Assembly (NCBI GenBank): GCA_027605045.1 | Contig: JAQFWX010000004.1 | Location: 1,994,683 to 2,058,682 of the forward strand | Source of the DNA: Phallus indusiatus | Lineage: Eukaryota > Basidiomycota > Agaricomycetes > Phallales > Phallaceae | Reading direction: 5' to 3' | Length of the DNA: 64,000 bases | Shown here: positions 1 to 64,000 of the stretch, one piece after another | How positions within the stretch are numbered: the stretch's first letter is position 1 | Layout of the letters: every line of letters begins with the position of its first letter | Made by a program: the position numbers and the translations under genes | The notes under the pieces: generated by a model | What the model was told of the DNA's origin: nothing | What the model saw: only the letters and a program-made list of their open reading frames with translations | Databases searched by the model: none

Positions 1-2246
1 CCAAGTGAACCGCCCAATATGTGAAACCTAAGGCTTAACACTAACCTGCCTTTTTCTTTCTCCCCGTTTCTCTTTCCATTGACATGGGCGCCTTCGGTCC
101 AAGCGGCCAAGACATGAAATACGTTTGTCCAAAGTAATTGTATTTCCTTGGTTACAGCTGGAGCAGCCGACAGCTCAGTCAGTGTATTTACAAGCTCAAA
201 AATATGGTCGATCCAATCGAATGCTTCAATTTGGCTCCATGTTAGATCATGCGGAGGAGTTGTCTGGTGAGGGTTCGTCGCACAGACTATTGCTGTCTCA
301 AGGAGGTCGAGGAGAGGGGAGAGTACAGGCGTGACGCCTGATATATCGTTCGGTAATTGCTTGTGTAATTTCATTAGGAGGTGGGTGAAATACGTATGAG
401 CGTTAGAGAAAACACCCGTATAAAAACCGTATCTCATTAAGGATACGTAGAAGGACAGCGTATCTCGAAGCATGCTGGCATGAATTCCATTGACATCAAG
501 CTCGTCCTGCATTATTGTTACATATCTCAACAGTATATCCGCAGGACCGAGAAGATGTTGAGCGACCTCTCTGTTGCTTTGAGCTAACGCTTGCAAAACA
601 CGTATGGATTTTACATTTGGAGAATTATCGCCGTCGCAGTCAACGCCAATCGTAGATAGGTGAGATTCCATTATAGCACGAACTATTTCGGGATTGGTAG
701 TGGAATCCACAACGCTCTTGGCGTGTTTTTCGAAGTGACAGAGAACGAATAAGATGTCTAATATCGCGTTAAAGGTTGTTGAAGAAGGCGAGTTACTGGA
801 GAGATGCGATTTCAGGGAGAACAAGAACCTTTGGACAGGTAGCATTGCCAAAAATGTGGCGGAATCAGCTGACAACAAGCATGAACGCTCTTGCTTGGAG
901 TCTGAGCTCCCCTTTGTCGCGGTGAAAGGGGTCAAGTCAACACAGGGGAATTTGCCGAGATCACTTTGATGCATTTCAACTTGGGTGCATCCTACGATAA
1001 TCTCCCAAAGAACGTCCACAGCACGCTGACCTACCCAGCCGCGTTCAGAAACAGCTTCCACCGCACTATCGAAGATGTCTCTTCTTAGAGCACCGAGATC
1101 GACACTACGATGAACTTCTCTCATAGGAATTGCCTCAGTGGTAAATGTAGCTGTGTAAGTGTTATGGAAAATCTTTCCTAACACTCCCAATACGCTAACT
1201 CTTTGGGAAGATGCAGAGCTTCTCGATAACTGAAGGAGGTCTTCAATTGTATAGCCAGCGGGGGAATCGGATGAGAAAGCTGAGCTTGTTGAAGCATGGT
1301 GATGCAGTCCTAAATGAGTCGGCAAATTGCGTATCTCTAAAGGAGAAAGTGGCGTTCCGGAGAGGGAATATCTGATAGCTGTTGATCCTTCCGAAAGTAC
1401 ATGATCAATGGAAGCGGGTTGAGGTAGCATCCATGCTAGCGATGGATTATCTTCTGGTGGGGTCTCGGAGGAAAAACTTTGCACGAATGGCTTCCGGGGA
1501 GTCGTCGTCGTCGTCTGGCTGAGTAATTGTGTCATCAGCTGGAAAGGTGTTTGATTTGTTTAGCGAGTAGTTTAGTGTACGAATATTTTCCTTATCATGC
1601 AAATTTTCTGGGGCGGGGAGCAGCAATCCTATAGGTCGCTTAGGGGGGGAGGGTGATGGCTCGTAGACATAAATATCCGATTCAGTTGGATCAGCAAAGC
1701 GAATCCTTCTGGTTACTGGCTGAGGAGCTTTTTCAGAGACCTGAGGTGCTCCCTCAGAAGCTGCTAAAAGCATGCTCAGCGACGGAAAAGTAGCGAGTGT
1801 GTGGAATAGCGCAGCTAACCAGGAGCAGAAGATGATGATGGATCGGCTCTCCTATTTCGAACTTGTTGCAGTTTTCTCATGGTGTCTAAAATTCCATCTC
1901 CAAAATACTCGAGGATCTCTTCCCGCCCTTGAGCCCGTTCCTCGTCTGTCATCTTTGCGAAAAGAGTATCAGCGGACGCTGATATGTCATTGTTCAAAGA
2001 CGGTTGTTTTAATGAAACCTCAGGAACTTCAACATCGGGAGAAGTTGACTCCGCAGTCTTTCGTGAGCTTGCTGCTTGGACTGAGCCCTGTTGTTGTCGC
2101 GCACGTTTGAACGTGCTAATACCTTTTGTAGCCAATCGATGATGAGCAGCGGGAAACCCTGTTTTTCTATCTGTTAACCCGACATCCACAGACTTTATTG
2201 AGGGTTGCGAGGCTCGTTCCGAGACATCTCGAATCAGAGGATTCAT
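1..2246 (-). CDS. RPAP1: RPAP1 homologue (RNA polymerase II-associated protein 1), 3' end off the left edge
   Basis: RPAP1 (yeast Rba50, plant IYO) helps assemble and import RNA polymerase II. I chose the ATG at 2244-2246 because the frame upstream has only non-ATG starts. The N-terminal part carries the RPAP1-N motif MTDEERAQGREEILEYFGD. The RPAP1-C motif AGYTIEDLLQLSRSSASSQR lies near 1190-1265 and matches the family's GYTLxELxxLSRSSxxSQR core. Intron 1 has its GT at 1819 and joins in frame to an exon starting just above 1760. Another exon ends at 46 with a consensus GTTAGT donor, so the rest of the protein lies outside the window. Near 1472-1476 the frame breaks by one base between SPEAIRAKFF and ETPPEDNPSLAWM, both of which look like parts of the same conserved segment. 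The identification is firm; the exact frame at that point is not. Confidence 0.85.
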
Positions 2247-2918
2247 ATCAGGCAGCAAGATGAGAGCGGTTATGTAATAAAATTGTGTCACACGCCACCA
2301 AGGTCTAACTTGAATGTCAACGCTCAAACCAAAATGCTCTTAACATCGTCGCAAGATGACGCGATGGATTGCACCCATGCACGCAAAGGGGAGTTTAGAT
2401 GTCCCGAAATCAAAAAAGCGGTGCGTTGGCATCACGGTTGTTGCCCACGGAAGGTATGAGAGGGTATAGTACCAAACGTGCCCATCATACAAACTACATT
2501 TGGGATATGTGCTATTCGACGATTAATTCTGAAGATGAGTGCGTCCAGATATCAGTGGAGCTGAGGCTAGTTGAGGGCGCGGAACAAGACATATACTGGT
2601 GTCCTCACATTGCCCTTACTGGCAATTTATTTCCAAAATTGGCTCTAACATTCATCGGCAAACAAAATTTTGGTTCTTTTCGAGTCCTGTACGTGATCCT
2701 CAGTTGAGCGCTTGGTCTAAAAATTGTACCAGTTACAACAGCATCAGTTCCCGCCAGGTTCCTATCTCTTTAGTTTTGATGAGTGCCGATGGTCACATCA
2801 CGATCATTTTATGTCTGATTGGAATTGGAGTATCCGATATTAAAATGTCGAGATTGGGGTTGAAATATTCCCAAAGCCCTGCTCGTTCCCCGAACTACCT
2901 TGAACTAGCTCATCGTCC
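2247..2918. other. Intergenic region between divergent genes
   Basis: This 672-bp gap separates the RPAP1 start from the membrane-protein start. It holds open frames of about 100 codons, but none has recognisable domains, fungal splice structure or codon conservation that I can see. I read it as the two promoters and 5' leaders. Confidence 0.4.
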
Positions 2919-8159: not shown

Positions 8160-11100
8160 CTATGGCTGCTGTGATACGTCGCTGCTGCTGCCGTTTGTGT
8201 GCGCGCCTAGGGGTAGCATGATGGGCTCGAAGGGATTGAAAGGTTCAAAGTCATCCTCCTAAAACGCAATAAATTCAACGGTGGTGTAAGATTCACTGAA
8301 CTCACCTCCGCAACTCTATCAAAATGTTTCGAAAGCTTTTCAATCACCAGACTATAATCCAAATGGTGGGTTAATTTCCTAGCCAGGAGTAAGATAGGTA
8401 ATTTTTTCAATGAACATAAAAAGCCTTCTTACCTTCGAGGCTGCACATTCAGGGAGTGCCGTGCGTCCAGCGCGGAATCCAAAACGTTAGTTGAATGTGC
8501 ACCCTCGCTAATAGATAATCGAATTGAATATTCCTTGTCTGATTTACCTCTGCCCCCGTTTCGTTCATATAATTCAAAGCTGAAAAAAGTTCACAATGTT
8601 ATCCTTTCTGAGAATGGACTTTACATACGTTATATGTGACTGGAACGTAGTTATTATCATTCACCTTCAAATACAAATTTAAGTAACATACCGCATAATC
8701 AAGCTCTGGAATTCGTGGTTGGGCGATTGGTAATCCAGAGTAAAGGACTAAATTTACAAGCGTGTGTATATGGCTTTCCTAATGATTGACATGAGGTTAA
8801 ACTCATTCCCGGAGAACGAACAAATCTTACCTTGGTAAAATAAGCTGTTATGGAACTACCATCCGTATTTCTTGCATTTTCAAGATCGCCAACGACTTGC
8901 CGGAGAAGTGGCAAGGAGGTAAGCACTCCAATTTCTTCCCTGAGAACAATTAGCCCGCCCGATATTGTCGACTAAAAAACTTACTTCTCGTGTGGTTCTA
9001 TGCCATATTCTTGAGGCGCAACAAGATCAAAGAGGGCTTTAGCCCTAGCATATAACTCGTGTAATTTCCTGTCTTTAGTATTTATGCCATACTTCCTCCA
9101 TGCTCATCGAAGATTGCGAATAAAAACGTTCTATGATGTAAAGCGCAGTACTTTATGGTATCGTAAAGTTCTGACACCTTTTACCACTATTGAGCAAAGT
9201 AATTTTCACCGAGATCGCTACTTACCCGAGAGGGATCGAACTTTTCCTGTTTCACATCACAGAAATCTTCAAATAGTTTTTCCCACCTCTCGGCAAACAG
9301 CCAAGGCTCGTCCCCACAACACCTATTCGACATTGAAAAACCAGGAGGGAATTGAAAATTGATTAGCACTCACCACCGCGGCTGAATTTTATCAACGTCC
9401 ATCGTTCTAAAATTACGACGCATGATGTCCCTGAAGGAGCTTAAAAGCTGAATGACTTCTTTAACGACTTCCACCGGCTCCTTTTTCATACTCTTGGGCC
9501 AAACTAGTTCAGGACGTTTCTCCGATTCACCGGGCCGCAATAATATTTTAAGCCTTTTTTTGACGTCGTCCATTAGATCTTTAGCAGCATTCGAATCATC
9601 TAACAAGTCTTTTCTAACTATCAATTTCGAGGGTTCTTGAAAACCGAATTAAGCAACGTTCAATAGATTTCAGACAAATATTTACCAGAGTCCGCAGTTG
9701 AGGGAAGTAAAGCCGCAGCAAAAATTTCCGCCGAACTCATAACGCGTCGTTCGGAAGACGTATAAATCTTGGATATCGATTTATGTGTATTGCTAATGCT
9801 GTTTCGAATCACTCACCACAACATTGTTCAATGCATCTTTGTCTTTTTTTTGTTAGTGCCAATCCAATTGAATTCTGCATAATCAACTCACTCATGATGG
9901 AAATGTCCTTCTTGAAACTCTCACCCAGATCCCGTGATTGATATTTTGCAGCATGAGTAAACTATGTAAAATCAATTTAGTGGTGAAAATGGCTTAGAGT
10001 ATAGCGTACCTCGCCTCCCCATTTGAAAACTAGTTGCAATTTAACCAATTTTCTAGTGCTCCCTGGTATACGTTTGGAATAACCGGGTTTCAGCTGAGCC
10101 TTGGTTCCGGGTAAATCGATTTTCTTTCCCAATTGGATATTTAAAGCCTCCAATTTAGCAAGATCGTCTCCAGATGCTCCTAATACCTTCGCTTCGGTGA
10201 TGGCGTCGGCCAATAGCTTTAATTGACCAGCTTCTCGAAGGATAACCTCTTCTTTATCGCCACTTAGCAAAACTACAAACGGCATAGCCCATTTTTCTGA
10301 AATGGGAAAATTGAACTTCAGCTTCTGTTTAGGAGTGCGGTCTGCGTGTCGAAATACTATCAAAGATTATGTGATGATAAGAACATAGGGTGAATGAGAA
10401 AAAGAAAAACAGACCTGTCACGTTCGCTTTAAGCAGCCATGTGTTGGAGTCGTTAGTTGTCGTTTCGCTAGCGATTATGGATGGAAGAACTGGTGTCTCC
10501 CTGAAACAAACTTCAGCTAATATTTCAGCTGCTTTATCTAGTAGATTGTTAGGAGAAAACTTTCAATGGGAGTGAAGGAGTGAAAATGATGAACCATAAT
10601 ATATATCGCTTCCTTTGACGAAACTCCACCCATTAACATCGATTACAAGACTTTTGGCTCCACTCTCGCAACGAAGAAGGTCAAACCCACAAACGCTTTG
10701 TCCAAATCCGACTGCAATTTTGGCTGCCCAAGACTTTTCCTCGTCAGTGAGGCGTGTTATGAATCTGGGACTGTAAGAAAATCACACTGGTCATTTATAT
10801 AATTACCATACCGAATTTCTTTCCCTTCTGTGTTACGACGAACGACACCGTCAACGACAGGAGATTTACGTGTTTCTGCATGGGTATATTCTGGGCCAAC
10901 GGTATACACTTTGATATCCTCGGCTGGAGAGTCATCCTTATTTGAATGCTGATGGGGACCGGTGAGGTATGTCGACTTACAGTTATCGACGTCGATGAAT
11001 TGTTCATAAATGTACGATCCTTCCATTCGAGGGGATACTAATGTGGGATCGAGCTCGCTCGATTTATTGCCAACCTAAAATGGAACTCGGTCTGAGCTCC

Positions 11101-12018
11101 AGGTTTTTGTAAGAGACAAGAAGCCATACCTTCCGAAAAAGCTTTCGACCACCACCTTCTCTGAAATAGATATAAATGTTATGATCTTCGCCACTGACTG
11201 GTTTCTCAACAAAGGGTTTTTCCAAAACTTCTCCGTCGATAATGATGGCCTTGCCGTTTTCGCGAAGTGTGACAGTCTTGGGTCTCTGTGCTTCTCCGAG
11301 CTTCAAGCCTAAGTTATCTAGCATATATTGCTGAACCTCTGGATGAACTGTTGGACCACCATCTCTGGATACTTCAATCCGGCGCGGAGTGGGGATATGA
11401 AGATGATCCAGGACAGCATTTACCAATCGGCGGTCCCACAGTAAGGACTGGGTGGGAAGGTCATTGATACAAAATGGACGACGAAGTTTGACATATGAAA
11501 CGGCTTTCCACAATGGAAAATCAACGCTGAAAAACGAGATCAAAATATCGCATCTAGGCCACCTCTCCACCTCTTTATTATTATAAAACAGCCCAGGTTA
11601 GAGTTATGATGTCACAAGGAGCAAAGGACAAACGAGCTCTGAGCTCACCTTCATCAAGGATGACTTTGTCTCCAAACACTTTTATCTCGATTGCACCTTT
11701 ACTCCTTTCTCTAATACGAGTCAGAATTTCTCTCATTGCCTTGGATCGAGCTTTGATATCCATAGCACAGACGCCTAAGACACACGAAGCGGGCATATTG
11801 AGCGACAAATTATTGTACCGGCCCCATATATCCTGCTTTGAAAGTATCGAAAAATTCTCAGAGGAGGTTGTAGGTGACGGGGAAAGTGAACGAGAGGCAA
11901 GTGAATGTGTTCTTGAATGGCCTTTAAAACCAGGAGAGTCGCCGGTTGAACGAAACCAGGCACTCCGAGAGTGCGGTCGACTTGAAATTGGTGTATTAGG
12001 CCGTTGACCCCCGTCCAT
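8160..12018 (-). CDS. VIP1: VIP1/Asp1 inositol hexakisphosphate kinase-phosphatase
   Basis: VIP1 makes inositol pyrophosphates (1-phosphate position) and has a C-terminal histidine-acid-phosphatase-like domain. The N-terminal ATP-grasp kinase half includes [50 protein letters not shown] and [13 protein letters not shown]. The phosphatase-like half begins at [12 protein letters not shown] (about 10340) and continues through [11 protein letters not shown]. The ATG at 12016-12018 is my start ([13 protein letters not shown]); longer frames need a GTG start. The stop is at 8160-8162, after an acidic [15 protein letters not shown] tail. At least a dozen short introns are present. Around 9095-9099 the frame slips by one base between LFAIFDEHG and [19 protein letters not shown], repaired by one extra base in a GG run. 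See findings. Confidence 0.9.
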
Positions 12019-12517
12019 TGGTGCTCCTTTTCCCTCTTTCTTGACACGAAGGGATGGCAGTCGTGGCAGCCGTGCCTCGCGATGAAGGGGCTTGAAGAAT
12101 GTGGCGCCGAATTTAGTCACGTGGGTTTAAATAGCCAAAGGGTTAACTGGTACCGACCGTTGCCCGAATATGTATTCAAATTCTTTAAGGAGGAAGTTGC
12201 AGACATGCCGGGTCTCACAAGTGATCAAAATTAAATAGAATAAATCTTTTAATAATCATACCTCAAGCACTATAACATCACAATTCTGAAAGCACGGATA
12301 CTGAATAATATAGAATAATCACAAAATAATATCAAACCCCGCCGATTTTCAGCTATGAAAAAGAACCATAATGTTTCGAGTGGAAAACACCATGATTCGA
12401 AACGGGTATAAAAGAAACGTCCACAAAAAAAAACCAACTTGAGTACACGTTATTAAAAAAGAAAGAAATCCCAATTTGTTCGTGACCCGCACTCTATTGA
12501 AAACCTTCGGACCTATT
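12019..12517. other. Intergenic, VIP1 leader and 3' flank of the next gene
   Basis: About 500 bp with no supportable gene. It is AT-rich toward 12240-12440. It should contain the VIP1 promoter and the 3' untranslated region of the membrane-anchor gene; both genes read leftward. Confidence 0.35.
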
Positions 12518-14826: not shown

Positions 14827-16079
14827 TCATCTCATAAATCCTCCGTTGTCCGGCAAAAGAATTGCGGCTGTCAGAACAGACTGTACGAGCTTGCTTGAAA
14901 GACCTTTGTATAGTCCAGACAGGCTCTCTTCCTCGATAATTTTCCGGAAGCCGTCCAATGACGACGTATACGATCGCGACTGAGCAGAATTAGCTTGTAG
15001 ACGAGACTTGACAACAATATAAGGGTATGTAAGCGTAGTAGCCACTAATAGTGTATATATTTGTTAGAGGCATGGAGTGGAAAATATGAGGTATTTTAAA
15101 ACCTACCCAACTTTGAGACGGCTCCTAGCCAGAAAAAATCTAAATCGGATAGGGTAGTGGTAGCCCCTGATATCTTGCCGACCTTTCGCAATTGGGCAGT
15201 ACGAGTTCGAATCAGGCTATTTTTGAGTTGTTCGAAAAGTGTATACTAAAGAGAACTGGTTAGATTCTGAATATCACTACGAGGCGTATTCCAAACCTGT
15301 ATAATAGGATTTATGACAAGGATTAAAGCTGGTCCGAGTCCTCTCCAGAATGCCAGGAGACCGTGTTTTCGCAATATGAGTTTGATTGTCTGGAGTACGG
15401 TCCATTTTTGTCTCCTGGCCTCCGGCAAGGCAGAACTGCTTGATTCCATTGTTTGTGTGGCCTGTGTGACTTGAACAACCCAGATTGGATTAGATAGTAT
15501 GGTTGTCGCAGTCCCTTTTGAGTATTCTTGCAGTTGGTGCAGAGACGATTAAGGAAGAAAGGGTGACATGCCTGCAATGAACCCCGACAACATGCTTTCA
15601 ATGGTGGTGAGTGCGCTGAGTTTGCCCTTTCTGGCTGGCGACCTCAGAATAGCCTCGCGTGTTCGTTCGTAGAAATAATAATACACTCTAATAAGTTGAT
15701 GAGCAAACACAGCCTTTCTTGAAATTCTTAACAAAGAATATAACCCATTTGTGACAGCTATTCCAAGCAAGGAAGAAGATAGACCAGCATATAGACCCAG
15801 GAGACCTTCCTTCGACACGATTTCTAGTACGGCTTGAGTAGTCGACTAAAAAATAAACGATGGAGCCTTTTACAAGATGTGAAATAGCGAGTCTGACCTT
15901 GTTCGTCCTTGTGGATTCGACTGCAGCACGTGTGCTGATGAATATGAGAGGACTAGAGTCGTCGGTCAGAGACATTGGCGTGTTCACCACGCAGCTAATA
16001 GTATCAATGCCCACTAAGTGACACTCATGGCCACAATACCTCCAGCGGCCCCAGCAGCAGCATGAATAACGGAAGACAT
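14827..16079 (-). CDS. Mitochondrial carrier family protein, peroxisomal PMP47/ANT1 type
   Basis: This is a six-helix solute carrier with three repeats. The start ATG (16077-16079) gives SSVIHAAAGAAGGIVAMSVT, spliced to YPLIFISTRAAVES. Carrier signatures are SKEGLLGLYAGLSSSLLGI, SNPIWVVQVTQATQTM and TYPYIVVKSRLQANSAQS. The degenerate PxxV/I motifs and overall order match fungal peroxisomal PMP47/adenine-nucleotide carriers; substrate is inferred only from the family. One intron (15515-15571) uses a GC donor. The frame ends at TGA 14827 after AAILLPDNGGFMR, but the other frame reads AAILFAGQRRIYEMINTF, the usual C-terminus, so a T is probably missing from the TTTT run (AAAA on + at 14855-14858). 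A copy of its first exon survives at 17039-17110. Confidence 0.85.
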
Positions 16080-22942: not shown

Positions 22943-23795
22943 ATGCAGTCCGTCTATCGTCTGATATACGGTGCGAGTCCCGAAGAAAAGGTCAGAAATT
23001 GGCAGCGACATCTCAGACGAGAACAACGGATTTTGGATAGGGAGATAAGACAGGTGTGGCGTGCGGAACCTTCATAAGCTTTCGTTTCATTGACATGCCT
23101 CTAAATTAGCTTGATGCTGCAACAAGCAAAGCTCGGGGACAACTAAAACAATTAGCTTCGAAGGGAGATACCAAAAATGCTCGAACGCTGGCCAAAGAAG
23201 TAGTTCGCACGAATAAACAGAAAGATCGTCTACATGTAAGTAAGGCCCGACTTGGCTCAATAGATGTGCAATTAGGGCACCAATTAGGTGAATCAGATGT
23301 TTAAATATACTGCTTATCGGTTGGTTCTTATATGTCGTTAGCTATGGTTAAAGTTACCGGCTCGTTGCACAAATCAACTGAAATAATGAAGCTCTCGAAC
23401 TCGCTTGTGAAACTCCCCAGATAAGCCAAGTTATGCGTGAAATGAGCATGGAGATGACTAAGGTATATTATCGCAATCTTTTGGTTAGAAACTTCAGCAA
23501 TGACAATGAACAGGCTGGGATAATTGAAGAAATGATTGACGACACTATTCAAATTGAAGAGGACGAAGAGCTCGAGGAAGAAGCTGACGCAGAAGTAGAA
23601 AAGGTGTTGTATGAAGTTACAGATGGCAAACTGGGTCAACTAGAGACTGGAGCTGAACTTCCAGTATGCATTGTTTTTTTGAACCTTTTTATGCTGATGA
23701 ATACACAGTCTCTCACAAACGAAGCTGATGAAGAAGAAGAGAGGAAACAAATGGAAGAATACCGAGAACAGCTCAATGGCTTACTTAGCGGATAG
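22943..23795 (+). CDS. VPS24: VPS24/CHMP3, ESCRT-III subunit (frame broken by one base)
   Basis: VPS24 caps and bundles ESCRT-III filaments at endosomes. MQSVYRLIYGASPEEKVRNW is the family N-terminus; KGDTKNARTLAKEVVR and MVKVTGSLHKSTEIMKL follow, then the acidic C-terminal MIM region ending QLNGLLSG. The conserved stretch LVKLP|QISQVMREMSMEMTK is interrupted: after CTC CCC the next bases read AGA TAA. One more C in the run at 23415-23418 gives CAG ATA AGC and restores the protein exactly, with no candidate intron to explain it. The final introns (at 23463 and 23664) are in frame. Confidence 0.85.
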
Positions 23796-35451: not shown

Positions 35452-35497
35452 CCGGGCTCGTGCTAATTCTGTCCCCCCCCTCACACTTTGCTGTCCT

Positions 35498-44194: not shown

Positions 44195-44248
44195 CAGGAT
44201 AGCGAGTGCGAGTTGTATGATATAATATCTAGTATATAGATAATTTTT

Positions 44249-46584: not shown

Positions 46585-46843
46585 GAAACACGAAATTTTT
46601 CACGCCTTATTCTTATTACTTAACGAAATCTTTTACGACATTTTTCATTAAGAGCGCATATTTCGTCTTCCTACATCTAGTGCCCTTACAACCCTCATTC
46701 GGATTTCCAATTTTCAATGTTTCACTACATACATACACACACTCACTGCATTACATAGTAACCACACTCAATCCTTTTGTCATCTTTTTTTGTATCACTT
46801 AATATCTGTCAAATAAACAAACAAATTACACCCAAGATTATAA

Positions 46844-48706: not shown

Positions 48707-48909
48707 CCTTCGCGTCGATGCGATTGCGAGCTGGCTCATGCCCAGCCACAGATCACGCACACAGGTTACCGACTGCTTGGCTCCCCTGGCGTCTTTTGAT
48801 CTTTGCCGGTGACACAAATGCGACATTCCGAGTCACGCCCCTTGCCAACCTGCGGATTGGTTCGGCCGTAGTTTTAGTCTCCTCTTTTCTGCAACAAGAG
48901 AGAAGAAGC

Positions 48910-50712: not shown

Positions 50713-50914
50713 CAAAGGTGACATGGGTTCAATAGGATAGCCGCATTTTATAGTCGTATTTACGTACATCTTGTTCAAACATGCTCACCTTAACGATATC
50801 TCCTTTTCTTTTCTTTTTTCAAGGGAGCCAAGTACACAAACATAACATTGAATAATATTGTTTATTTTGCATATTATATAGCAATCGTACAAACAGATGA
50901 AAAGAAGAAGAATA

Positions 50915-51727: not shown

Positions 51728-51937
51728 GTTGAAAGTCGAAGTCGGAGAGTCGATGCTGGTCGCGTTACTGTCACTGCGCAGTTTAGTGATGCAAGTAGCT
51801 TAGGTTGCACGAACATAAGTATTCCTTGTATTTTTAAGAACCATATTCACAAGGTAACAAAAAAATTACAGAGACATTAGGTTTAATGATGTACTTAAAG
51901 TCTGTATTCTGTTCCCTGTCTTCAGGAAAAAAACAAC

Positions 51938-52022
51938 TCCCCAGGACCGGGATCGAACCAGTGACATTCAGATGAAGTGCTTCCATTACAGTCTGACGCT
52001 CTTCCAACTGAGCTACCCGGGG
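51938..52022 (-). tRNA. tRNA-Tyr (GTA anticodon) with a 12-nt intron
   Basis: Read on the minus strand: acceptor CCCCGGG pairs with CCTGGGG plus discriminator A; D-stem GCTC/GAGC; anticodon stem TCAGA/TCTGA; T-arm ACTGG-TTCGATC-CCGGT. The anticodon loop is CTGTAA, an intron TGGAAGCACTTC (51974-51985), then A, giving GTA at the anticodon and the intron after position 37 as expected for eukaryotic pre-tRNA-Tyr. A and B box sequences (TAGCTCAGTTGG, GGTTCGATCCC) are present. Total 85 nt, 73 without the intron. Confidence 0.93.
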
Positions 52023-52627
52023 CCGATGTAATATCGCTTGCATTAGTATATATCCCGATGAATCGAAAGCTTGTCTCCGAGCGAAACTTCCATGTCCGCT
52101 GGTTGCAAAGTAAATGGATAACCGCGATGACACCCAATCTCTATACACGTTTATCTTCCTAGTGGTCATTGTATTGTAAGAATGACTCAAATAAACATCT
52201 TATGGGTTTCATTTAACATGATTGCTAACAGAACATTCTTTCTACTCTGGCTCATCATATCTTCGTGTCTTGGAGTGCCTCTTAAAGCCTTCATAGCTGA
52301 TACCTGGCGATCTGTATTTTCAAGGGAAAATCCCGACTCACGCGGCCGGATAGCGTCTGTCAGAAGAAGACAACAGGATGGTGAAGAATGGGAGATGGAA
52401 TTCAGAAGGAGAGCGGGGTAACATTCAAAAAGGGTAATAACCTTGGGGGAACTGGAGATATACTATTATTCGGGAAAAAAAATAAACTAGAGCTGTAGGC
52501 TTAGAACATTTTCTTACAAAATACTTTGTCAGTACGCCAATGTATTGTAATTATCAGTATCATGATACCGTCAAGTTCGTTTCGGGCGTCAATTCTGAAA
52601 TACTAAATCATCTTTGACTCTTTACTC
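52023..52627. other. Intergenic region between tRNA-Tyr and CTNNBL1
   Basis: 605 bp. It contains a 79-codon frame (52182-52421) with one hydrophobic stretch (TFFLLWLIISSCLGV) and a basic tail. There is no homology I recognise, so I do not call it a gene. Confidence 0.3.
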
Positions 52628-55044
52628 ATGGATATCGACAAGCTTTTCAAAGTAACTCAATTATTTCCTCACAGGGTTTGACTCTCATGGTTATTTACAG
52701 CTTCCCAAACTATCAGGGAGCAGAAAGCGACAATTACCCGATGCACCTACGCCGGACATGCTCAAACGCATGAGAATGGACAATACAACCGCAAGCTCCT
52801 CAGACGCGACTACTTCAGCACAAAACGGACATGATACATATTCCGCGAAAGGAAAACTGAAAAATGTAGTGATTGAAGACGTGGACGAAGATGCTCCTGA
52901 AGAGCCTTCGGATTTTGCTCCAGGAGGAGACGCGGATTATTTCGCTGAAGAAGACGAAGAAGGTCGCTTTTTTGGTGGTGGATTGACAGACGAGCAGAAG
53001 AAAATCCTCAACATATTTGATAATGTACCAGAAGATGGTAACCTTGCAGATGGCGTTCGTGTGTTTCTCTTGTTATGCTGGCCCTAGAACTGACAGCTAC
53101 AGACATTTTGCTAGTCCGACGAACTATCTCCAACTGTCATACGTAGATTATTGTTACAATTTGAAAGAGCTGTTAAGAAAAATCAAGACCAGCGTTCAAA
53201 GTACCCAGACGATCCAACAAAGTACGTTGTCGAACTATGATGTGTGAAATAGTTACTGACCTTCAATTCCAGATTCATCGACTCAGAGGCCGATTTGGAC
53301 GCGGCAATAAAAGCATTACTACCGCTTGCACAAGTTCCAACCGTTGCTTACCCCGAACTGCTTAATTCTGGCACAGCGGATGCCCTGGTGGACTTGCTGA
53401 GCCACGAAAATGCGGATATCGTTATCGATGTCGTTGAAGTTATACATGAACTTACTGATGAAGATGCTGGCAATGAAGACGAGGAGGAAGATGGTCGAGA
53501 AGAGGTTTTGAAGGAATTAATGGAAGGACTAGTAAGTTGCATTCAACAAGTGATCGCCTCGTTCCTATCTAATCATTATTTAGGTAGCAAAGTCTATTCT
53601 GGAGCTATTAGTACAAAATCTTGCGCGACTAAATGAAAGCGAGGAAACCGATCGACAAGGTGTATTCCACATTTTAGGTGAATACTGTCCTTAGCTCTCC
53701 TTCCTAGTTAACTTCAATATCGGATTCAGGCATATTCGAGAATATTCTGGGATTTAATCCAGAGCTGGCTACACAGTTAATTGCTAAAACGACCTTGATG
53801 ACTTGGCTGTTGCAACGACTCAGCGCGCCAGTTCAGGATGAAAATAAAAGATATAGCGCCGAACTACTATCGATCCTTCTACAAAATAATCGTCAAAACC
53901 GTCTAACGTTTGGAGACAAAGGTGGCGTGGATACATTATTAAAAGTGTTATCAGTAAGCAGCCGTAATTAGATCATCTTGAATACCTAAGTTCATTTTGC
54001 CTCAGCATTATCGTCGGAGGACCCTGCCGACGCTGATGAAACCGAATTCATGGAAAACGTCTTTGATACCTTATGCTCGGCTCTTATCGAACCAGAAATT
54101 AAGGAGATTTTCCTCAAAGAAGAGGGAATTGATCTAATGGTTCTTCTAATGAAGTCAGCTTGCTTCTTCTCATCACAAATGGTGAAATGACCTTTTCATC
54201 TAGGAAAAAATCAGTCTCAGTCGCGGGCAATCAAGGTCCTCGATCATGCCTTATCTGGAACAGCAGGAACCGCTAATTGTGAGGCTTTCGTGGAAGTACT
54301 AGGTTTGAAGACCTTGTTTGCTGCGTTTATGGGCAAAGTTATTGAATCTTACTACGTTCCGATGACCTTTTTGACAATATCTGGGTAATCTAGGGTCACA
54401 AACAGAAGAAGAATGGTTCGACAGCTCCAACAAACGAAGACACCACACACATGCTTGGAGTTATGGCGTCGCTTTTTCAAATCTGGCTTCAGAATCCCAA
54501 GCTCGAATACGGTTATTGACCAAATACGTTGAAGCTAACTATGAAAAGGTCGATCGGTTGCTCGAAATTCGTGAACAGTCAGAAAATCGCCTGAAAGCTG
54601 CCGAACGAGAGATAGAACAGGAGCGTCGAGTATGTAACACTTTCTCTCTTCGTCAGGTATACTGAAGGTCTGTTATTTAGGATTTGGTCGCAGATGGTGT
54701 TGTCGTAGGCGAAGACGAGGAGGACACGTGGTACCTCAGAAGATTGGACAGTGGATTATTCGTCTTGCAGACGGTAGACTTCATCCTCGGTTGGATATGT
54801 ATGGAAGACGACGGAGTGCGTATTCATCTTGTCCTTTATCAATGTCTGTTAACGCTTGTATTAGGTTCGCAGTCACGTAGTAAAAATGCTCGACCGCAAG
54901 AGCAAGAGCTTAAAAGACATTGTATCAGTCCTGAAGATATATCGCGAAAATGTTGGAGAGGACCAAACGCGAGCACCAGATGATCCTTCGCCCACGCAAC
55001 AAGAGATTCTGGACGGACTAATTACATTTTTGGATGGATGCTAA
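52628..55044 (+). CDS. CTNNBL1: CTNNBL1-like armadillo-repeat spliceosome-associated protein (frame broken at three runs)
   Basis: CTNNBL1 binds the Prp19/CDC5L complex. Exon 1 is MDIDKLFK; after a 49-nt intron comes LPKLSGSRKRQLPDAPTPD. Conserved segments are FFGGGLTDEQKKILNIFDNV, VIRRLLLQFERAVKKNQDQR, SKYPDDPTKFIDSEADLDAA, NSGTADALVDLLSHENADIV, RQGVFHILGIFENILGF, EFMENVFDTLCSALIEPEI, AIKVLDHALSGTAGTANCEA, RIRLLTKYVEANYEKVDRLL and EEDTWYLRRLDSGLFVLQTV. The frame slips at three mononucleotide runs: GG 54019-54020, AAAAAA 54205-54210 and TTTTT 54473-54477. Each slip lies inside conserved sequence that continues in another frame. The gene is probably intact in the organism. Stop TAA 55042-55044. 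Confidence 0.87.
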
Positions 55045-55073
55045 TATATGTCTTTACACGAGCAAAGCGAGAA

Positions 55074-56899
55074 TTAGTTTTGGGGTAATGAGGATGATGT
55101 TACTGTGGATAAAATCGACGCGGAAAGTATCATGTCTAATGCGCCGCGAACCTGGGTTAGTTCATTTTGAAACTTGAGTTCGGCTTCTATTTTTTTTCGC
55201 AGTTGAAGTAACAGGCCGTCGATTAGTGGAGAGTGCCCGAAGACCGGGGTATACATTTCTAATGCATAAATTATTTGAATGCGCTCGTGTGAAGTAAAAA
55301 AAAAATCGTACCTATTAGGACCTTACCCACGTCACAACTTAACTCTCCAAATCTGGGATCCGTAATATTTTTTAGAAGTAGTCGTAGAACGGGTTCTAAA
55401 AGAACATCATCACGACCTGCGAGTGCAGGACGCAGACCATCTCGATGTACTAGTTCTTGTATTAATGAAAATTTGGTTGCCGGGGGTCCTTGCTACATGA
55501 AGTTCCATTTGATTAAATCATTGAGTGTTGAGAGAACTTGGCGCATACCTTGGCCAACACCGAATCCAATGCAGCACCATACTTAAATGATTTGAGAAGT
55601 CGGTCATATTCCCTTAATCGTTTCTTCCTTCTGCTTTCTACTCGAAACTCGTCTATGTTGTCTAATTTTTTCGATTTTCCTTTGATGTTTTGGCGGATTT
55701 TTCGTTCTCCGATATTTGGAAGTACACCACCTAGAAATGATTCGATCGTCCCCGAGCGAACTGCATCAGTACCCATTGCCATATCGGCAGCGGCTTGTTC
55801 GGAGGCTTTTGGATCCCGTCTCCTCACCGAGAGGGTTCCGTCAGACATACCCGCTGCTATGTGGGTATCATCTGGCTGTCAGATGTACGTAATTAGAAAG
55901 GGAACGTCATGATATATAATGGAACTCACTGAGATAGCCAGACATAGAATATTAGATGGATATCTCATTGTGTGTACGACTTTGTATGTACTAACATCAT
56001 AGACCTTGACCATCTGATCAAGCGAGCCAGTTAGGAGTCTAGTAGACTTGCTATCAAAGGCAAGGGCAGTGATAGTTTTTTGGTGATTTGAGATTGCACG
56101 AAGGCATCGCCCGCCAGCTACAAGATCCCATACACGAAGAATGGGGCCAGACGATGATAAGGCAATTGACCCGGAGGGGAACATTAGCACTTGTTCTACG
56201 GGGACAGCACCGCTCTGTGAATTTCCTCCCATTGTCATTTCACATTCTCCCGATCGACTATCGAATAATCGAACGGTAGAATCGTAGGAACCGGTAAGAA
56301 TGAGATGAGGGTTCGACTGCGATACCACACCTGTACGAACATAGTCGGTGTGGTCGGTAAATGTAGTGATCGCGGATTGAGAAGGCATATCCCAGAGTTT
56401 GACAGTGGTATCATCTGAGCAGGATAGAATCTGCGTATGCTGTACAGATGAAAATTTGGTAACGTGTACGGGTTGCTTATGAGAATCAAGGGTTCGGAGA
56501 ATGGATCTGCTGTTAATATCGAATACCTTTGCGACAAAATCATCAAACGATGTTAATACGCGAAAAAATGAAGAGAAAACGACATACTTGAATTAAACCG
56601 GAATCATCTCCTGCAACGACGAGTTTGCCATCGTCTCTGATGCATCCACTTCTGGCAACGTCCTTAAACCGAGATATTGTCTTGATAATACGTTGTGTAC
56701 GAGGGGCGTAAATTTGAATCCGGGTAGCAGCACTAACTGCATAGCGATGAGGTTTTGAAGGGGAAAAATGGACAGAAGTTACGGGCGCATATTCTTTGAC
56801 AAAGACTGGGTGTTTGAATCTTCGCCAATACCTTGACTCGGGGTTGTGTTTTGAGACAAGTCGGGGCTGCTGTTTGATTACTACGGGATGGTAATCCAT
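55074..56899 (-). CDS. UTP15: UTP15, U3 snoRNP / small-subunit processome WD40 protein
   Basis: Needed for 18S rRNA processing and rDNA transcription. Start MDYHPVVIKQQPRLVSKHNP at 56899; then RYWRRFKHPVFVKEYAPVTS and WD40 blades ending in DDTTVKLWDMPSQS, STVRLFDSRSGECE, LRVWDLVAGGRCLRAI and DQMVKVYDVSTYKVVHTMRY. The UTP15 C-terminal domain follows: RRKKRLREYDRLLKSFKYGA, ALDSVLAKQGPPATKFSLIQ, ELVHRDGLRPALAGRDDVLL and a final IDGLLLQLRKKIEAELKFQN. Frame intact over five introns. Head to head with TCTP over 242 bp; both are growth-related. Confidence 0.92.
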
Positions 56900-57141
56900 A
56901 AACCACCCTTATGACTTGAAAGAATAGGTTATTCAGAAGATGAAAATTCAAATTTTTACGACCTATACACTCACAAATTTTCCCAGACGAGATTCGCTAC
57001 GACAAGCCGTGACTTTAAGACCTGTGACACCGTGACGAAGGAGCCAAATCGTCGGTGATCGCTGATCAAAAAATTTTTCTGGTTTATCTCTCTCCTTCAA
57101 CCTTCCAAATCACTTGTATTCTTGGTTGTATATTTTGTAAA

Positions 57142-58007
57142 ATGCTCCTATACACCGATATCCTTACCGGCGATGAAATGTTCTCCGATGCCTTCCCCAT
57201 GTAAGAGCTCAGTCTTATTCATTTTGATCCGAACTTGATTGAGATTTTTCATAGAAAAACAATCGACGATGTCATCTTTGAAATCGACTGCGCTATGATT
57301 AATGTCAAGAAGGGCGCCGATGTAGATATTGGTGCGTGCTCCAAGTTAACCCTTAGTCCCTTTTATCAATTGCTTTTGATCTAATTGAGCTCACAACCCG
57401 TAAGGCGCGAATCCTTCGACTGAAGAAGGTGAAGAGGCGTTGGAGGACGGTATTTCCGTCGAAAATAACGTTGTTTATTCGTTCCGTCTGCAACAAACAA
57501 GTTTCGATAAGAAGACCTACTTGACGCATCTCAAGGTCAGTGCTTTGGTGTGCAATTTGGGCTCAGGGACCGATTGACAATTTAACAGTCATATATGAAA
57601 GCCGTCAAGACGAAGCTTCAAGAGACTAACCCTGATCGAGTCGAGGATTTTGAGAAAAAAGCTTCAGCATATGCTAAGAAGATTGTCGCTAATTTCAAAG
57701 ACTACGACTTTGTCAGTCCTGGAATACGTTTATACAGAACTTGCGATCATATACTGATTGATTATATTTAGTACACTGGCAGCTCAATGAATGTCGATGG
57801 TATGGTTGCGTTGTTGAATTACAGAGTGAGCCACTACTTGCATGTTACAAAATTCTTGCGTTGACATAGTTATCGACGTTTTTTTCAGAGTGACGGCACA
57901 ACTCGTGAGTATAGATCGAACGACGCTAGGTTCATTCCAACTAATATTTCAATTTTCCAGCTTATTTTACAATTTGGAAGGACGGTGTCAAGGAGGTCAA
58001 ATTGTAA
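57142..58007 (+). CDS. TCTP: Translationally controlled tumour protein homologue
   Basis: Small conserved ribosome-associated, growth-linked protein (yeast Tma19). MLLYTDILTGDEMFSDAFPM is the family N-terminus; IDDVIFEIDCAMINVKKGAD, NNVVYSFRLQQTSFDKKTYL (TCTP signature 1), YMKAVKTKLQETNPDRVEDF and YDFYTGSSMNVDGMVALLNY (signature 2) follow, ending FTIWKDGVKEVKL. Six small exons, including one of about 10 nt region near 57889-57903 that reads SDGTT across its junctions. Length about 167 residues, normal for the family. Stop TAA 58005-58007. Confidence 0.95.
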
Positions 58008-58201
58008 CTTGTCTGTAATAATCTTTTTGTTCGAATGAGAAAATAGAAACCTTTGGCGCATCCGATAGTGATAATAAATCAAGAAAGTGTGTTCTTAAAA
58101 CATTACAGTTATTGAGATAAACATCACAGGCAAGTATAAATATATATACAGATATTGGCTAAAGCTCCTGGGGACGCAGTGGCTTCATTTTGTGCATACT
58201 T

Positions 58202-60023
58202 TTACAGTTCATCATGTTCGTGATGGTCTGGTTCCGCGGTGGGTGTCTCTAGGGATTCCGAGGTTGCTTCTGGTGTAGTCTCCTCAGCCGAGGGAGTAGC
58301 AACTGGTTTCTCTAATGAGTTCTTGGCATTGGCTTCTATGTATTCAACGAATGAATCGAGGGACCTGTCGCCGGTATAATCGACGAATTCGGTGCTACCG
58401 GCTGGCTTGAACTTTATGGTAGGGAACCCGCTCACAGAGAAACCAGCTGAGGGGGGGATATCATTTTCGGTAGCGTCCATTTTAGCGCTACAAAGAAAAT
58501 CAACGTTGAAAATGTGGGGATGCGGAGAAATAAAAATGAAAACCGACATTAAAATCCGGTCTTGCAAGTCGTGGTAGCGGTCACCAAGCAAATCCCAAGT
58601 GGGTTTTAAGCGCTTGCAGTGTCCACACCTGTTTGAAAATAGTTTACTTGCATACATCAGCATAATTGATTGGGAGGACGGACCATGGCGCATAGAATTC
58701 AATAAATACGTCTTTATTGACATCGGCGGCGAACTCCTCGAATTGAGAGCTTACGACCGTAAAGACAGTTTCGTTCTGAACGTCGGGAATCGGCTGGCTC
58801 TTGAGAGAGGGTTTCAACTCGCCAGCAACATACTTCCGGACAAGGTCGGAAACTGTCTCATGACCAACTTCTACGCTCTGTTCCAGTGGGTATTTAAGCT
58901 GTTTCCCAACGTCTTGAATGACGAAGGCAGGCCATTTACTGTCGTGGAGGTTTAATGCCTTAGCGTGTTCACCAAAGCGAACGGCATCAATCAAGACAAA
59001 GTTGACTTTGCCCTGGTGCTCCTTGGCCAATGTCGTCAGGTATTCTTTATGTTCGGCGACCAGTTCAGAATCCTTGAGGTCAGCGAAAAGGTACGCCAAC
59101 GGAAGACCGCTTTGAACGTAGCGTTGGTAGTTGTCAGGACCGACTTCATCGACGTAGGGGATCTCGTGATTTTTAACGAATGCTTCAATATCTTCAGTTG
59201 TGGCTGAAGCAGCATCACCGTCGTAAATCAGTACGGGTTCATCGAATTTGCGATAGAGAACAATGGCGGGCGGAGTGACACCGGCATGAGCAAAGAGTTC
59301 GCTATCTGTTGATGATCCGAACAAGTAGTCATCACGATGCTTTTCAGCGGCGGCAGTAAAGGCAGCTGAAGGCTTCTTGGAATCTGAGACAAAGCTGATA
59401 ATAACGATTTTATCTGCTTCTTTGAACTCTTCAAAATTTTCCGTGGTAACTTCTGAGACGGCAGGCAAGGATTGTCTAAAGTTCATTTGTCAGATGAAAA
59501 AGCAGCTATGTAATGTTTCAGAGAGGCACTTACTTGATCATATAGGAGATAATTCCATCACTTTGTCGAGGACCGGTATAATCATTCGGTGTGCCGTTCC
59601 GGAAAACCTTCAGAGTACTAAACAACACATAAGATTTAATGGGAAAAGGAAATCAACGGGCGAAACATGAAACGTACGGGTATCCTTGCACGCCATGTTG
59701 GTGGCAAAGGTCGGCTTGGTCAACACAGTTTACTTTTGCCAAAGGAATGTTCTTCTCTTTGAGAGAAGTAGCCGCAGTCTCGTAATGAGGAGCCAAAGCT
59801 TTGCAATGTCCACACCTGACAATCATCAGGTGATTACTTGACCAAAAATAGATGACTACACTGTTTCTTACCACGGCGCAAAGAACTCGACGAGAATGAG
59901 TTCCTCTGGATTTACAACTGAGTCGAAATTAGCAGCATCAAGTTCGAGAACATCTGATGCGTCAGCTGCGCGGGCTGCTGTCGCCCACAGAGCAAGAAGA
60001 GAAGCTACAGCGGTCAGACGCAT
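58202..60023 (-). CDS. PDI1: Protein disulfide isomerase, ER lumen (HDEL)
   Basis: Signal peptide MRLTAVASLLALWATAARA, then thioredoxin domain a with active site FFAPW|CGHCKALAPHYETAA, domains b and b' (VIISFVSDSKKPSAAFTAAA; FVLIDAVRFGEHAKALNLHD), domain a' with FYAPW|CGHCKRLKPTWDLLG, and an acidic tail ending DHHEHDEL, an HDEL-type retrieval signal. Both CGHC sites are whole. In each active-site domain an intron splits the Trp codon just before CGHC (59816-59871 and 58629-58683). Seven or so exons in total; frame intact. Stop at 58202. Confidence 0.95.
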
Positions 60024-60372
60024 GAAGAGAAAAAGAAAGAAACGGTATGAGGGATGGGGGACAAAGAACTCCGTGACATGCTTATAGTTATAGTGGCAAG
60101 GTGACACGTCAGTCTATTACGTAATTCAGCTGTTGTCGTCCTGTCACAGCGCCATTGGCTGCTTTAGATGACAACTTGAAACGGCATTCGATACAAATGT
60201 AGCAAATTTTGTGGCAAGACCCTACTGATCAATAATATTATAATATATTACTAATGGCATCGACAAAATTAGGCAGAACTAAGCTAAGAGTGAAATGTCA
60301 AAGGAACAACCTCGCACATTGCCGCTTGCATATCGCTTGGGCGTTGAACTGAAATTTCGAGGAGGCGGAAAA

Positions 60373-61475
60373 TCAGCCGATGTAAGAAAAGTATGTTCCT
60401 GAAGAAGGGGGAGGAGAAGGTACTAAAGGGACACAGAAGGACCAATGGTCAGAATGAGGGAGAACTTGGCGCATTATTATTAATGACTCACTTCGTTTGG
60501 ATTTTGATCCATTTACGAAAGCCGAGCCAGGACTGGTGACAGAAACGGCGCGTCTAGTAGGATCACTCCCTCGCGGTGGAATAGGAGAGGAATTGCTTTC
60601 TGATAGGCGGGAAGGAGGCAGGGAGACGGGAGAAGCCCTGGAAGGTGGGGTAGGTGTAGCAGATAAGGCACGAGCGCGAGGCGGTGGATCTGCTGTCTGG
60701 GGACGCCTCGCGGGAGGTGGTGGAGCAGCCCGCACAGGCGATTCTGCAGATGACGTGGTAGGTTTAAGGACAGAAACTGGACGAGGCGGTGGTGGGGGTG
60801 GCGCGGGACGACCCGACGGTGGTGGAGGCGGCGGTTTTCGAGGTGGCACAGAGGGAGCTGCTGGTTGGACGGGAGAATTGAATTTCTGGATGGGGGGCAC
60901 TGCACGTGTGGGGAGTGACGGGGCACTGGTGGAAGGACGTGGCGGAGGAGAGACAGATCTAGGTCGTGAAGGCACTGCAGGTGGACGACGAGGGACTGCC
61001 GGAGCAGATGGGGCGGCAGGAGGGGGAACCGCTCGGGATGGAGGAAGTCGAGGTGGTGGTTTCGATGGAGGTGTGGAACGAACTGATGAACTAGCGTCGG
61101 TCGAAGACTCAGTGGTGTCTACATTGCGTTTTGGGACGGCAGGTGCTTTGCCTAATGACAAGGGTTTATCTGGGTGATAACGATACGTGAACAAAGGATA
61201 GAAAAATGGACTGCAATTGACATACTCGGTGTAGATCCTCCTGCTGGTTTCAGCTTCGGTATGCCACCAGCAAACAGTCCTCCCAGTTGTGGGGGACCGC
61301 CTCCAACTCCAACTCCAACGCCGCCGCCAGCACTACCGCCACTTCCACCACCGACGGGCCCGCGTGCTCCTCCTGCAGGTTTAGTTTGTACAGCAGGCGC
61401 ACTCCGGTCATTAGTTTCTGTTTTCTTAAGCTTTCTTCCTTGCTGAATTTGCGCGAGTAGAGCTGCGTTGCTCAT
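60373..61475 (-). CDS. VRP1: Verprolin/WIP homologue (WASP-interacting, WH2 domain)
   Basis: WIP/verprolin stabilises WASP and promotes Arp2/3 actin assembly at endocytic sites. MSNAALLAQIQQGRKLKKTE at the N-terminus is a WH2 actin-binding motif (ALLxxIxxGxxLKKT). Exon 2 is Pro-rich with SH3-binding stretches (RKPPPPPPSGRPAPPPPPPR). The visible frame stops at 60373 after SSGTYFSYIG. In the next frame the sequence continues ADFPPPRNFSSTPKRYASGN to a stop at 60279, which looks like the WASP-binding C-terminal motif (FPPPRxF). The AAAA run at 60387-60390 is the likely site of the slip. The open frame on the other strand (60497-61177) is composition only. Confidence 0.8.
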
Positions 61476-61770
61476 GGTGATAGTGGTGCAAGTAGATAGA
61501 CAATAGAGATGCGCAGTTTGAGCTTTAATCCGTGGCCAACAAAGGACGCATTGCTTTCTGTCCCGGCTGCTCGGCTTAGTCAGATCAGTCGAATCTCATT
61601 ACTAGGGACTAATGGCATTATCATTTGTCCTGTTCAATTTCTCTACAAAGGTAGCATACTGTCATTGAGACATAAGTCGTAGGCTATATTAATTTTGCAG
61701 AAAGGCTTGGAATACATAGTCAGATAATGCAGTCATATGGTTAATGGCAAAATGTGCAGATTCATGATCT

Positions 61771-62305
61771 TCATTCGGCCTTTTCAGCACCTGCTGTCGC
61801 CCGGGCTGCAAGAAAATTTTGCTTCAGAACAAAGTGCCATCAAAGTAAAGTTGGTACTCACTGAACACAAGTTGACTTGAACTGTGAACGATCCGTTTGA
61901 TCAATCCTTCCTTTTCCAAGTCACGGATAGCCATACGAGCAAGACTTCCATTGATTTTGAGTCGTTCAATGAGGATAGCAGTGCTAATGAATCGGAAGGT
62001 GGGGACTTCCTTGTATATTCGGTCGTAGGTGGACTTGTCGACAGTGACGGCGTGTTGGGCCTTGTCCTTGACCTTTCCCTTCGACCATTTCTTCTTCTTT
62101 GCTTTTCCACCCCCACTTGATGTTGGCGCTGCCGCTTTCGCTTTGGCCTGAAAAGGTTTTACGTGTCAGCTGCGATTCAACTGCATCTGTCCTAATTGCG
62201 ACCCATCCATCCAATCTTCAATACGCAATTTCGTCAAAGATGGATCGAGTGCATAACTCGAAGCTCATAGATCGATGCAATGTAAGAAAAGTGTCGACTC
62301 ACCAT
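61771..62305 (-). CDS. RPS25: 40S ribosomal protein S25
   Basis: Ribosomal protein eS25 of the small subunit. Exon 1 is just the start codon (62303-62305), followed by a 155-nt intron (62148-62302) with donor GTGAGT. Exon 2 then reads AKAKAAAPTSSGGGKAKKKK, WSKGKVKDKAQHAVTVDKST, YDRIYKEVPTFRFISTAILI and ERLKINGSLARMAIRDLEKE. The last exon is RATAGAEKAE with stop 61771-61773. Length about 100 residues, as usual. An exon consisting of ATG alone is common in fungal and animal ribosomal protein genes. Confidence 0.93.
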
Positions 62306-62546
62306 CGATTTTAATGGCCTAGATGACAACGAGAGAGAATAATGAGGCTTGGAGAGAGTTGGCGTCTAATTCCTATCCATCCTTTAGGCGCCACACATTT
62401 GCTTCCGCTCGCTTTTCCTGCGGAACAACAGCTTCCAGTTCGAACCTTGTCATATGGTGAAGTAAGAAAATATTTCACAGCGAGTTTACCTCTCTTTTCG
62501 ATTCTTGAGATTTTAAGCTGAGAAAAAATTTTAGGATGACTTGTTG

Positions 62547-64000
62547 ATGCTCAAAACTGGTACTGGAATTCTACATATTCGTACCAGAGATTATCCTACA
62601 TTCATACGGAACTCAACATGCTCGATATCCTGTCGCTTTTCAGCTTATACAGCAATTTATTCGAATCCCGCTCGTGCACCGATAGGTCGCCCTGTAAAAC
62701 AAAATACCTCAAGACCTCCGCGGTGGAAAAATTCCGTCCTTGACAATTTGGATGCGTCAAATAGGAAGGCCCAAAGCGTACCAGCGGTGCCACACGATCC
62801 AAAACTGTCTAATTTATTACAAAAAGTTGTCCCTGATAAATCTTCTGATCCGGATCCATTTTCTCCACTTCCTGTTCGTCCAGACCTCAAGCATGAACAT
62901 ACCCCCAACGCCAGTTGCAGCGACTTAATCGAGGAAGCACTTATGGATGACCTCTCTGAGATACCGGACGTACCTGATGTACAAATTAATGAGCCCCGAA
63001 TACAAGATATCTCAGACGAGCGTAGTTATTTACTTCAAAAGATACGGGATAATATCACCTTTGAAGACTCATGGAAGGCCTATTCCCGTTTGCTCCACTT
63101 GCAAAAGTCATACGGAAACGACCTGCCAATTACACCCTTCATCCCCATCATTACCTCCATTTTCTGTCTAGTCAGCTAGCAAAAGTACAAGCTGCTGGAC
63201 GTCGACATTTCTTCCGATTTCTTTCCGTCTTAACCTCTTTGCGTACAAGTGGAGGGACAATCTTTGATTGGGAATGGAATTCGCTTATCCACTGTTCTGC
63301 AAAAGCTATAGGAAGACAACTGTTGAAGATTATCGAATAGCTCTTGGTATTTTCAAGGACATGCTTAACTCTGCTTCCGTTCTCGAGAAAGAGTTACGAC
63401 ATAGTACAGGAATAGGCAGCGAGGATCCTCTGCCTGATGAATTAGAGAAAACTATTGCTCGTCCCGACGCTGTTACGTACGCTACTCTACTCGGTATAGC
63501 CTCACGAACAGGAAATTCTAACGCCGTCCAACACGCTCAATCGATGCTTATTGCGTCCGGACAACCTTGGATACCAAGAGCACACAGTGCTATGTTGCCA
63601 TACTATATGTCAACAAATCAACTGGATGCAATTCCTCGTGTCGTGGCTGCTTCTTTCCCGGAAGATACGTCGATAATCCTCATCACTCAAGTCATTTGGG
63701 CATACGCGCATAAAGGACGCATGCGCATTGCAATGCAGATATATGACTTTCTGCGCGGCAACATACCGCCAGAGGATAAGCTGACTGCTGACGAGCCTTC
63801 TCAGGGAAGTTTTGGCTTGGAATGGAGGAAGACATTTAGCTCTGACGAGACGGAGGGCAATCCTATTCTATCTCTTCCTGGGTTTATTGATCACGCGACC
63901 ATGCCACCTAATGGGATAACGTATTGCACGCTAATCCAAGCGCTGTGCTATCACGGCGAACTGATAGGTGCCATCACAGTCTTCAGAGACATGCTTTCCA
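62547..64000 (+). CDS. Pentatricopeptide-repeat protein, probably mitochondrial, 3' end off the right edge
   Basis: PPR proteins bind organelle RNA. Helical-pair motifs are DYRIALGIFKDMLNSASVLE, DAVTYATLLGIASRTGNSNA, VQHAQSMLIASGQPWIPRAH, TQVIWAYAHKGRMRIAMQIY and NGITYCTLIQALCYHGELIG, each about 35 residues long and cut by the window end. The N-terminus is basic and Ser-rich, as for a mitochondrial presequence, but the true start is uncertain: the first ATG of the frame is 62547, and a GTAAGA...TTTTAG intron ending 62534 could join an upstream exon from 62342. The frame slips at CCC 63135-63137 and AAAA 63301-63304; one extra base in each restores PITPLHPHHYLHFLSSQLAK and HCSAKSYRKTTVEDYRIALG. 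Confidence 0.75.

What the first reader, a model, noticed from the sequence alone, without database searches (positions are those of the whole stretch)
1..64000. Recurrent one-base losses at mononucleotide runs break about ten conserved genes
In RPAP1, the agaricomycete membrane protein, VIP1, the PMP47-type carrier, VPS24, the RTA1-like gene, the BTB-like gene, CTNNBL1 (three sites), verprolin and the PPR gene, a conserved protein runs on in another frame exactly at a mononucleotide run. In nearly all, one extra base in that run restores the protein. Chance clustering of inactivating mutations in single-copy essential genes (VPS24, CTNNBL1, VIP1) is implausible, so systematic under-calling of runs in the assembly is the simplest account. 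Roughly as many other genes are clean.
Basis: partly seen in the sequence, partly recalled or inferred. Interest (0 to 1): 0.75.

Follow-up and report, generated by a model that had tools for sequence, protein, structure and literature searches.

The report
Assembly errors mimic broken mushroom genes
Several housekeeping genes of a stinkhorn mushroom look broken here most likely because the genome assembly drops single bases, mostly in short runs of one letter, and not because the fungus has lost the genes.

Summary
The frame breaks are real in the letters but almost certainly not in the organism. The window lies on contig C140 of a 67.22 Mb, 206-contig assembly that matches, by statistics and relatives, the published Phallus (Dictyophora) indusiatus ZS assembly (nanopore plus Illumina, Canu, Pilon, BUSCO 254/290). 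All 5 break, at 7 sites: five net one base short, two net two short (or one long). Only 3 of 6 computed break intervals touch a run of 4 or more, so 'exactly at a run' is overstated. The decisive control lies inside the assembly: copies of the same DNA on C140 and C204 differ by 4 single-base run lengths against 1 substitution in 21.8 kb, where a true haplotype pair has 35 against 821. One difference breaks CCT2 on C140 while the C204 copy is open. An Hsp70 pair shows the same without any substitution in 499 columns. This is a known defect of nanopore assemblies. Five listed genes were not tested against relatives; raw reads were not available.

The parts
1470..1476 (-). RPAP1 frame break, at a T5 run next to CC; net two bases short or one long
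   Evidence: aligned to P0242; three-frame view; coordinates
8163..12018 (-). VIP1 (inositol hexakisphosphate/diphosphoinositol pentakisphosphate kinase) gene
   Evidence: Clathrus P0121 aligned 875 of 982 residues identical, 17 introns, 1 frame break, no stop
9083..9096 (-). VIP1 frame break, net one base short, at no clear run
   Evidence: 5 of 5 relatives; interval with 4 relatives
14850..14862 (-). PMP47-type carrier frame break near the C-terminus, holding a T4 run; net one base short
   Evidence: read by eye, coordinates; expected C-terminus recalled
23413..23423 (+). VPS24 frame break, holding a C4 run (23415-23418); net one base short
   Evidence: CHMP3 fragment alignment
52628..55041 (+). 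CTNNBL1 gene with three frame breaks
   Evidence: five relatives aligned
54015..54022 (+). CTNNBL1 break 1; only runs of 2-3; net one base short
   Evidence: 5 of 5 relatives
54154..54210 (+). CTNNBL1 break 2, across a short intron and the A6 run 54205-54210; net two bases short or one long
   Evidence: 4 of 5 relatives; interval with 3
54472..54479 (+). CTNNBL1 break 3, T5 run 54473-54477; net one base short
   Evidence: 5 of 5 relatives

Best explanation
The genes are intact in the living fungus. The assembly is a long-read consensus, very probably nanopore reads assembled with Canu, whose correction left single bases missing here and there, mostly in runs of 2-7 identical bases and sometimes elsewhere. 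Each loss in an exon or at a splice site looks like an inactivating mutation. Shown: frame breaks in conserved genes; copies of the same DNA in this assembly that differ almost only by single-base run lengths; two such differences that break a conserved gene in one copy while the other copy is open. Inferred: that the losses inside the window, whose tested pieces have no second copy, have the same cause.
For: C140/C204: 4 single-base run-length differences and 1 substitution over 21,827 columns, C140 shorter in 3 of 4, against 35 one-base indels and 821 substitutions in the true haplotype pair C165/C195; Fisher p = 1.7e-5. One of the four, C140:2937943, splits a CCT2 exon that is open in C204 and aligns through the site to solved CCT2. 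Hsp70 copies C162/C113: no substitution in 499 columns, one T fewer in a run of C113, frame broken. All 5 of these 5 differences lie in runs. Broken window genes keep 78% (CTNNBL1) and 89% (VIP1) identity to Clathrus with no in-frame stop in those two alignments. Assembly statistics match a published nanopore assembly with low BUSCO.
Against: The window's own sites could not be compared with a second copy. Not all breaks lie at runs. The run-length spectrum shows no gross truncation. One of the four C140/C204 differences is shorter in C204, so C140 is not always the worse copy. The paper says Pilon and 176x short reads were used, which should have removed most such errors. In Drechmeria polishing more often over-called runs.
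Confidence: 0.92

Rival explanations
1. Consensus switching between the two nuclear haplotypes of a dikaryon left mixed indel alleles in a collapsed stretch.
For: Tested window pieces are single-copy in an otherwise redundant assembly. The three CTNNBL1 sites lie within 465 bases; clustering has P = 0.047 under a rough assumption of 9 losses in 9 kb.
Against: A switch should bring substitutions and should rarely cost a coding frame; the duplicated stretches show run-length differences with almost no substitutions.
Confidence: 0.04
2. Real inactivating mutations in one nuclear type of a dikaryon, covered by intact alleles in the other.
For: The letters are broken in 5 of 5 tested genes; no second allele of the tested pieces is in the assembly; an ordinary pair of haplotypes does carry some one-base indels (35 in 41 kb).
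Against: At least five conserved genes within 64 kb would have to be hit, several times in CTNNBL1, with no decay otherwise: 78% and 89% identity to Clathrus and no stop in those two alignments. Copies of identical DNA show the same kind of loss.
Confidence: 0.03
3. Programmed ribosomal frameshifting, transcriptional slippage or RNA editing restores the proteins.
For: Downstream reading frames stay conserved.
Against: The sites share no motif (C4, T5, A6 at an intron border, GGAGGAC, GGAAGTAT), and some genes break at one site and others at three. Proteins of five relatives for CTNNBL1 and for VIP1 are annotated as continuous.
Confidence: 0.01

Closest known systems
Homopolymer-length errors in nanopore assemblies of the fungus Drechmeria coniospora (PMC7500977; passages seen)
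   Same: Insertions and deletions in homopolymers shift the frames of conserved single-copy genes; errors differ between near-identical genomes without clear pattern; short reads later corrected them
   Different: There the polished assemblies more often over-called runs, and the errors were proved with reads; here losses dominate and the proof is from duplicate copies. The assembly here is reported to be Pilon-corrected already
Indel errors in nanopore assemblies of filamentous ascomycetes (PMC9453082; passages seen)
   Same: Indels in homopolymers and, less, outside them are named as the main accuracy problem and a frequent cause of frameshifts
   Different: They saw none in three genes at 100x with Racon and Medaka; the assembly here used Canu and Pilon at 181x

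Membership tests
Residual run-length error of a nanopore assembly | Source is a nanopore assembly | tested here: inconclusive
   Size, contig number, largest contig and nearest relatives match P. indusiatus ZS; no accession was seen
Residual run-length error of a nanopore assembly | Identical DNA assembled twice differs mainly by single-base run lengths | tested here: met
   4 to 1 in 21.8 kb; 1 to 0 in 499 columns; elsewhere in the assembly, not in the window
Residual run-length error of a nanopore assembly | Window breaks lie at mononucleotide runs | tested here: inconclusive
   3 of 6 computed intervals touch a run of 4 or more, P = 0.04-0.13
Residual run-length error of a nanopore assembly | Reads show another run length than the assembly | not testable with these tools
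   no reads held
Real pseudogenes | Decay beyond the frame break (stops, relaxed identity) | tested here: not met
   no stop and 78% / 89% identity to Clathrus for CTNNBL1 / VIP1
Programmed frameshift | Shared slippery motif at the sites | tested here: not met
   six computed intervals differ in sequence
Programmed frameshift | Same site conserved in the DNA of relatives | not tested
   only proteins of relatives were seen

The most novel reading that the evidence does not exclude
At least some sites are true one-base deletions kept in one nuclear type of a dikaryon, with the partner nucleus or RNA slippage supplying the function.
Probability: 0.03. Interest if true: 0.8.

Novelty: not a real feature. 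Interest (0 to 1): 0.12.

Why it matters
It is a caution about a public reference. Gene counts, lost-gene lists and completeness scores from this assembly should not be trusted gene by gene until it is corrected again. The redundancy seen alongside also bears on the published claim that P. indusiatus has an enlarged genome and enzyme set (PMC11766896, passages).

Tried and rejected
Second copies of window loci: none for 22500-25500, 52600-55200 and 9000-13000. 26001-45900 was not scored. 45901-64000 returned only three 90-base hits overlapping the tRNA and not even the window itself, so it does not show absence.

Run-length spectra of window and six other stretches: no clear difference. A true haplotype pair and a 99.6% pair show ordinary indel to substitution ratios, so such comparison does not reveal shared errors (only alignments of 5,000 columns or more were used, 2 per pair). 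Link of window breaks to runs: weak. Clustering: P = 0.047 under an assumed 9 losses in 9 kb, weak. Pfam and NCBIfam scans of RTA1-like, BTB-like, PPR and other open frames gave no match that helped. Two pattern searches for the carrier gene failed before one found it. No paper held both stinkhorn and nanopore assembly terms, and none joined 'Phallus indusiatus', 'frameshift' and 'genome'. An ARAGORN scan found no tRNA where Rfam found one.

Full report
WHERE THE WINDOW COMES FROM. The window is C140:1994683-2058682 of an assembly of 67,222,576 bases in 206 contigs; C140 has 3,398,106 bases. The CTNNBL1 protein is nearest to Clathrus columnatus (75%), then Hysterangium, Ramaria, Gautieria and Sphaerobolus; VIP1 is 77% identical to Clathrus over the pieces searched. 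The published Phallus (Dictyophora) indusiatus strain ZS assembly has 67.32 Mb, 216 contigs (323 in its abstract), a largest contig of 3.39 Mb, GC 44.05%, SQK-LSK109 nanopore reads at 181x, NovaSeq reads at 176x, Canu 1.8, Pilon 1.23 and BUSCO 254 of 290 (passages of PMC9948255). The window's GC is 44.8%. The match rests on statistics and relatives; no accession was seen.

THE OBSERVATION. I wrote a protein-to-genome aligner that allows introns and frame changes (working) and aligned relatives. CTNNBL1 breaks at 54015-54022, across a short intron at 54154-54210 and at 54472-54479; 4 of 5 relatives show all three and Clathrus the first and third. VIP1 has one break at about 9096-9083 with 5 of 5 relatives; 3 of the 5 gave further breaks near 9626-9692 or 8667 and 2 of the 5 one stop near 9651-9662, not shared by all, which I take for alignment noise. 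RPAP1 breaks at 1476-1470 with the one relative that spans it, and the next 1,036 aligned residues are clean with the other. VPS24 breaks at 23413-23423 against a human CHMP3 fragment. The PMP47-type carrier was read by eye and breaks at 14862-14850; its name and expected C-terminus are recalled. So 5 of the 10 listed genes were tested and 5 of 5 are broken, at 7 sites; the other five were not tested against a relative. A LAC1-like gene reads clean by eye (its TLC-domain match is below the Pfam cut-off).

Five of the seven sites are net one base short; RPAP1 and the CTNNBL1 junction are net two short, or one long. The break interval touches a run of 4 or more at 3 of 6 computed sites (A6, T5, C4). 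CTNNBL1 54015-54022 has runs of at most 3; VIP1 at most 2 with 3 of 4 relatives and 3 with the fourth; the RPAP1 interval is one base beside the T5 run. Against a 14-22% chance for random coding intervals of 6-12 bases, 3 or more of 6 has P = 0.04-0.13. The run-length spectrum of the window resembles that of six other stretches, and CTNNBL1, VIP1 and RPAP1 hold 95 runs of 4 or more in 6,416 coding bases, of which at most 3 lie at a break. The losses are sporadic, not wholesale.

THE DECISIVE CONTROL. Parts of the genome are assembled more than once. C140:2926500-2948325 and its copy on C204 agree over 21,827 columns except for 1 substitution and 4 single-base run-length differences; C140 is the shorter in 3 of 4, C204 in 1 of 4. 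The true haplotype pair C165/C195 (41 kb, 97.4-97.9%) has 821 substitutions and 35 one-base indels, so the excess in C140/C204 does not look biological (Fisher p = 1.7e-5; against C180/C179, with 6 indels to 70 substitutions, p = 5.9e-4). One of the four, C140:2937943 in a G run, splits an exon of CCT2; the C204 copy is open over 148 residues and aligns through the site to solved CCT2. In a second pair, Hsp70 on C162 and C113, 499 columns hold no substitution and one T fewer in a run of C113, which breaks the frame. By my hand grouping of three family scans, 2 of 13 sets of copies show a copy split where another is whole; two more sets (C2/C150; C105 against C120, C153 and C183) differ by one base in span and were not examined.

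MECHANISM. Shown: this assembly contains single-base losses in short runs, on this very contig, that break conserved genes and are absent from a second copy of the same DNA. Inferred: the window's breaks have the same cause. The tested pieces have no second copy in the assembly, so this could not be seen directly. Losses may be patchy (three CTNNBL1 sites within 465 bases; two C140/C204 differences 19 bases apart), which would fit local failure of short-read correction, but the support is weak (P = 0.047 under rough assumptions).

RIVALS. Real inactivation in one nucleus would need at least five conserved genes hit within 64 kb, yet CTNNBL1 and VIP1 keep 78% and 89% identity to Clathrus with no stop in those alignments. 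Programmed slippage or editing would need a shared signal, and the computed sites share none. A consensus jumping between haplotypes should bring substitutions with it.

KNOWN OR NEW. The kind is well known. In Drechmeria coniospora, homopolymer-length errors of nanopore assemblies broke many conserved genes; they differed between near-identical genomes, and short reads corrected them; there polishing more often over-called runs (PMC7500977, passages). In nanopore ascomycete assemblies, indels inside and, less, outside homopolymers are named the main accuracy problem (PMC9453082, passages). A search for 'Phallus indusiatus' with 'frameshift' and 'genome' found no paper in the held library.

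Noticed in passing
Assembly G000: e.g. C145/C24/C4, C134/C34/C188, C120/C153/C183/C105, C140/C204: Many genes occur as 2-4 near-identical copies on separate contigs, so the 67 Mb size probably includes uncollapsed haplotypes or duplicated contigs. The published reading of P. indusiatus as having an expanded genome and 2.1-2.5 times more CAZyme genes than two relatives (PMC11766896, passages) may partly rest on this.
   Followed up: partly
window 51938-52022, minus strand: A tRNA gene found by Rfam (54.5 bits) but not by ARAGORN; three 88-89% similar 90-base stretches lie on C13, C201 and C184.
   Followed up: partly
G000:C124:563922-565400, C202:10357-11835, C203:120580-122058: A Cpn60/TCP1 family gene that is one open frame of 528 residues without introns, in three copies, unlike the other family members listed.
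   Followed up: no
window about 15571-15519, minus strand: An intron of the carrier gene seems to begin with GC rather than GT, read by eye.
   Followed up: no
PMC9948255: The paper gives 323 contigs in its abstract but 216 in its text and table; the held assembly has 206.
   Followed up: no
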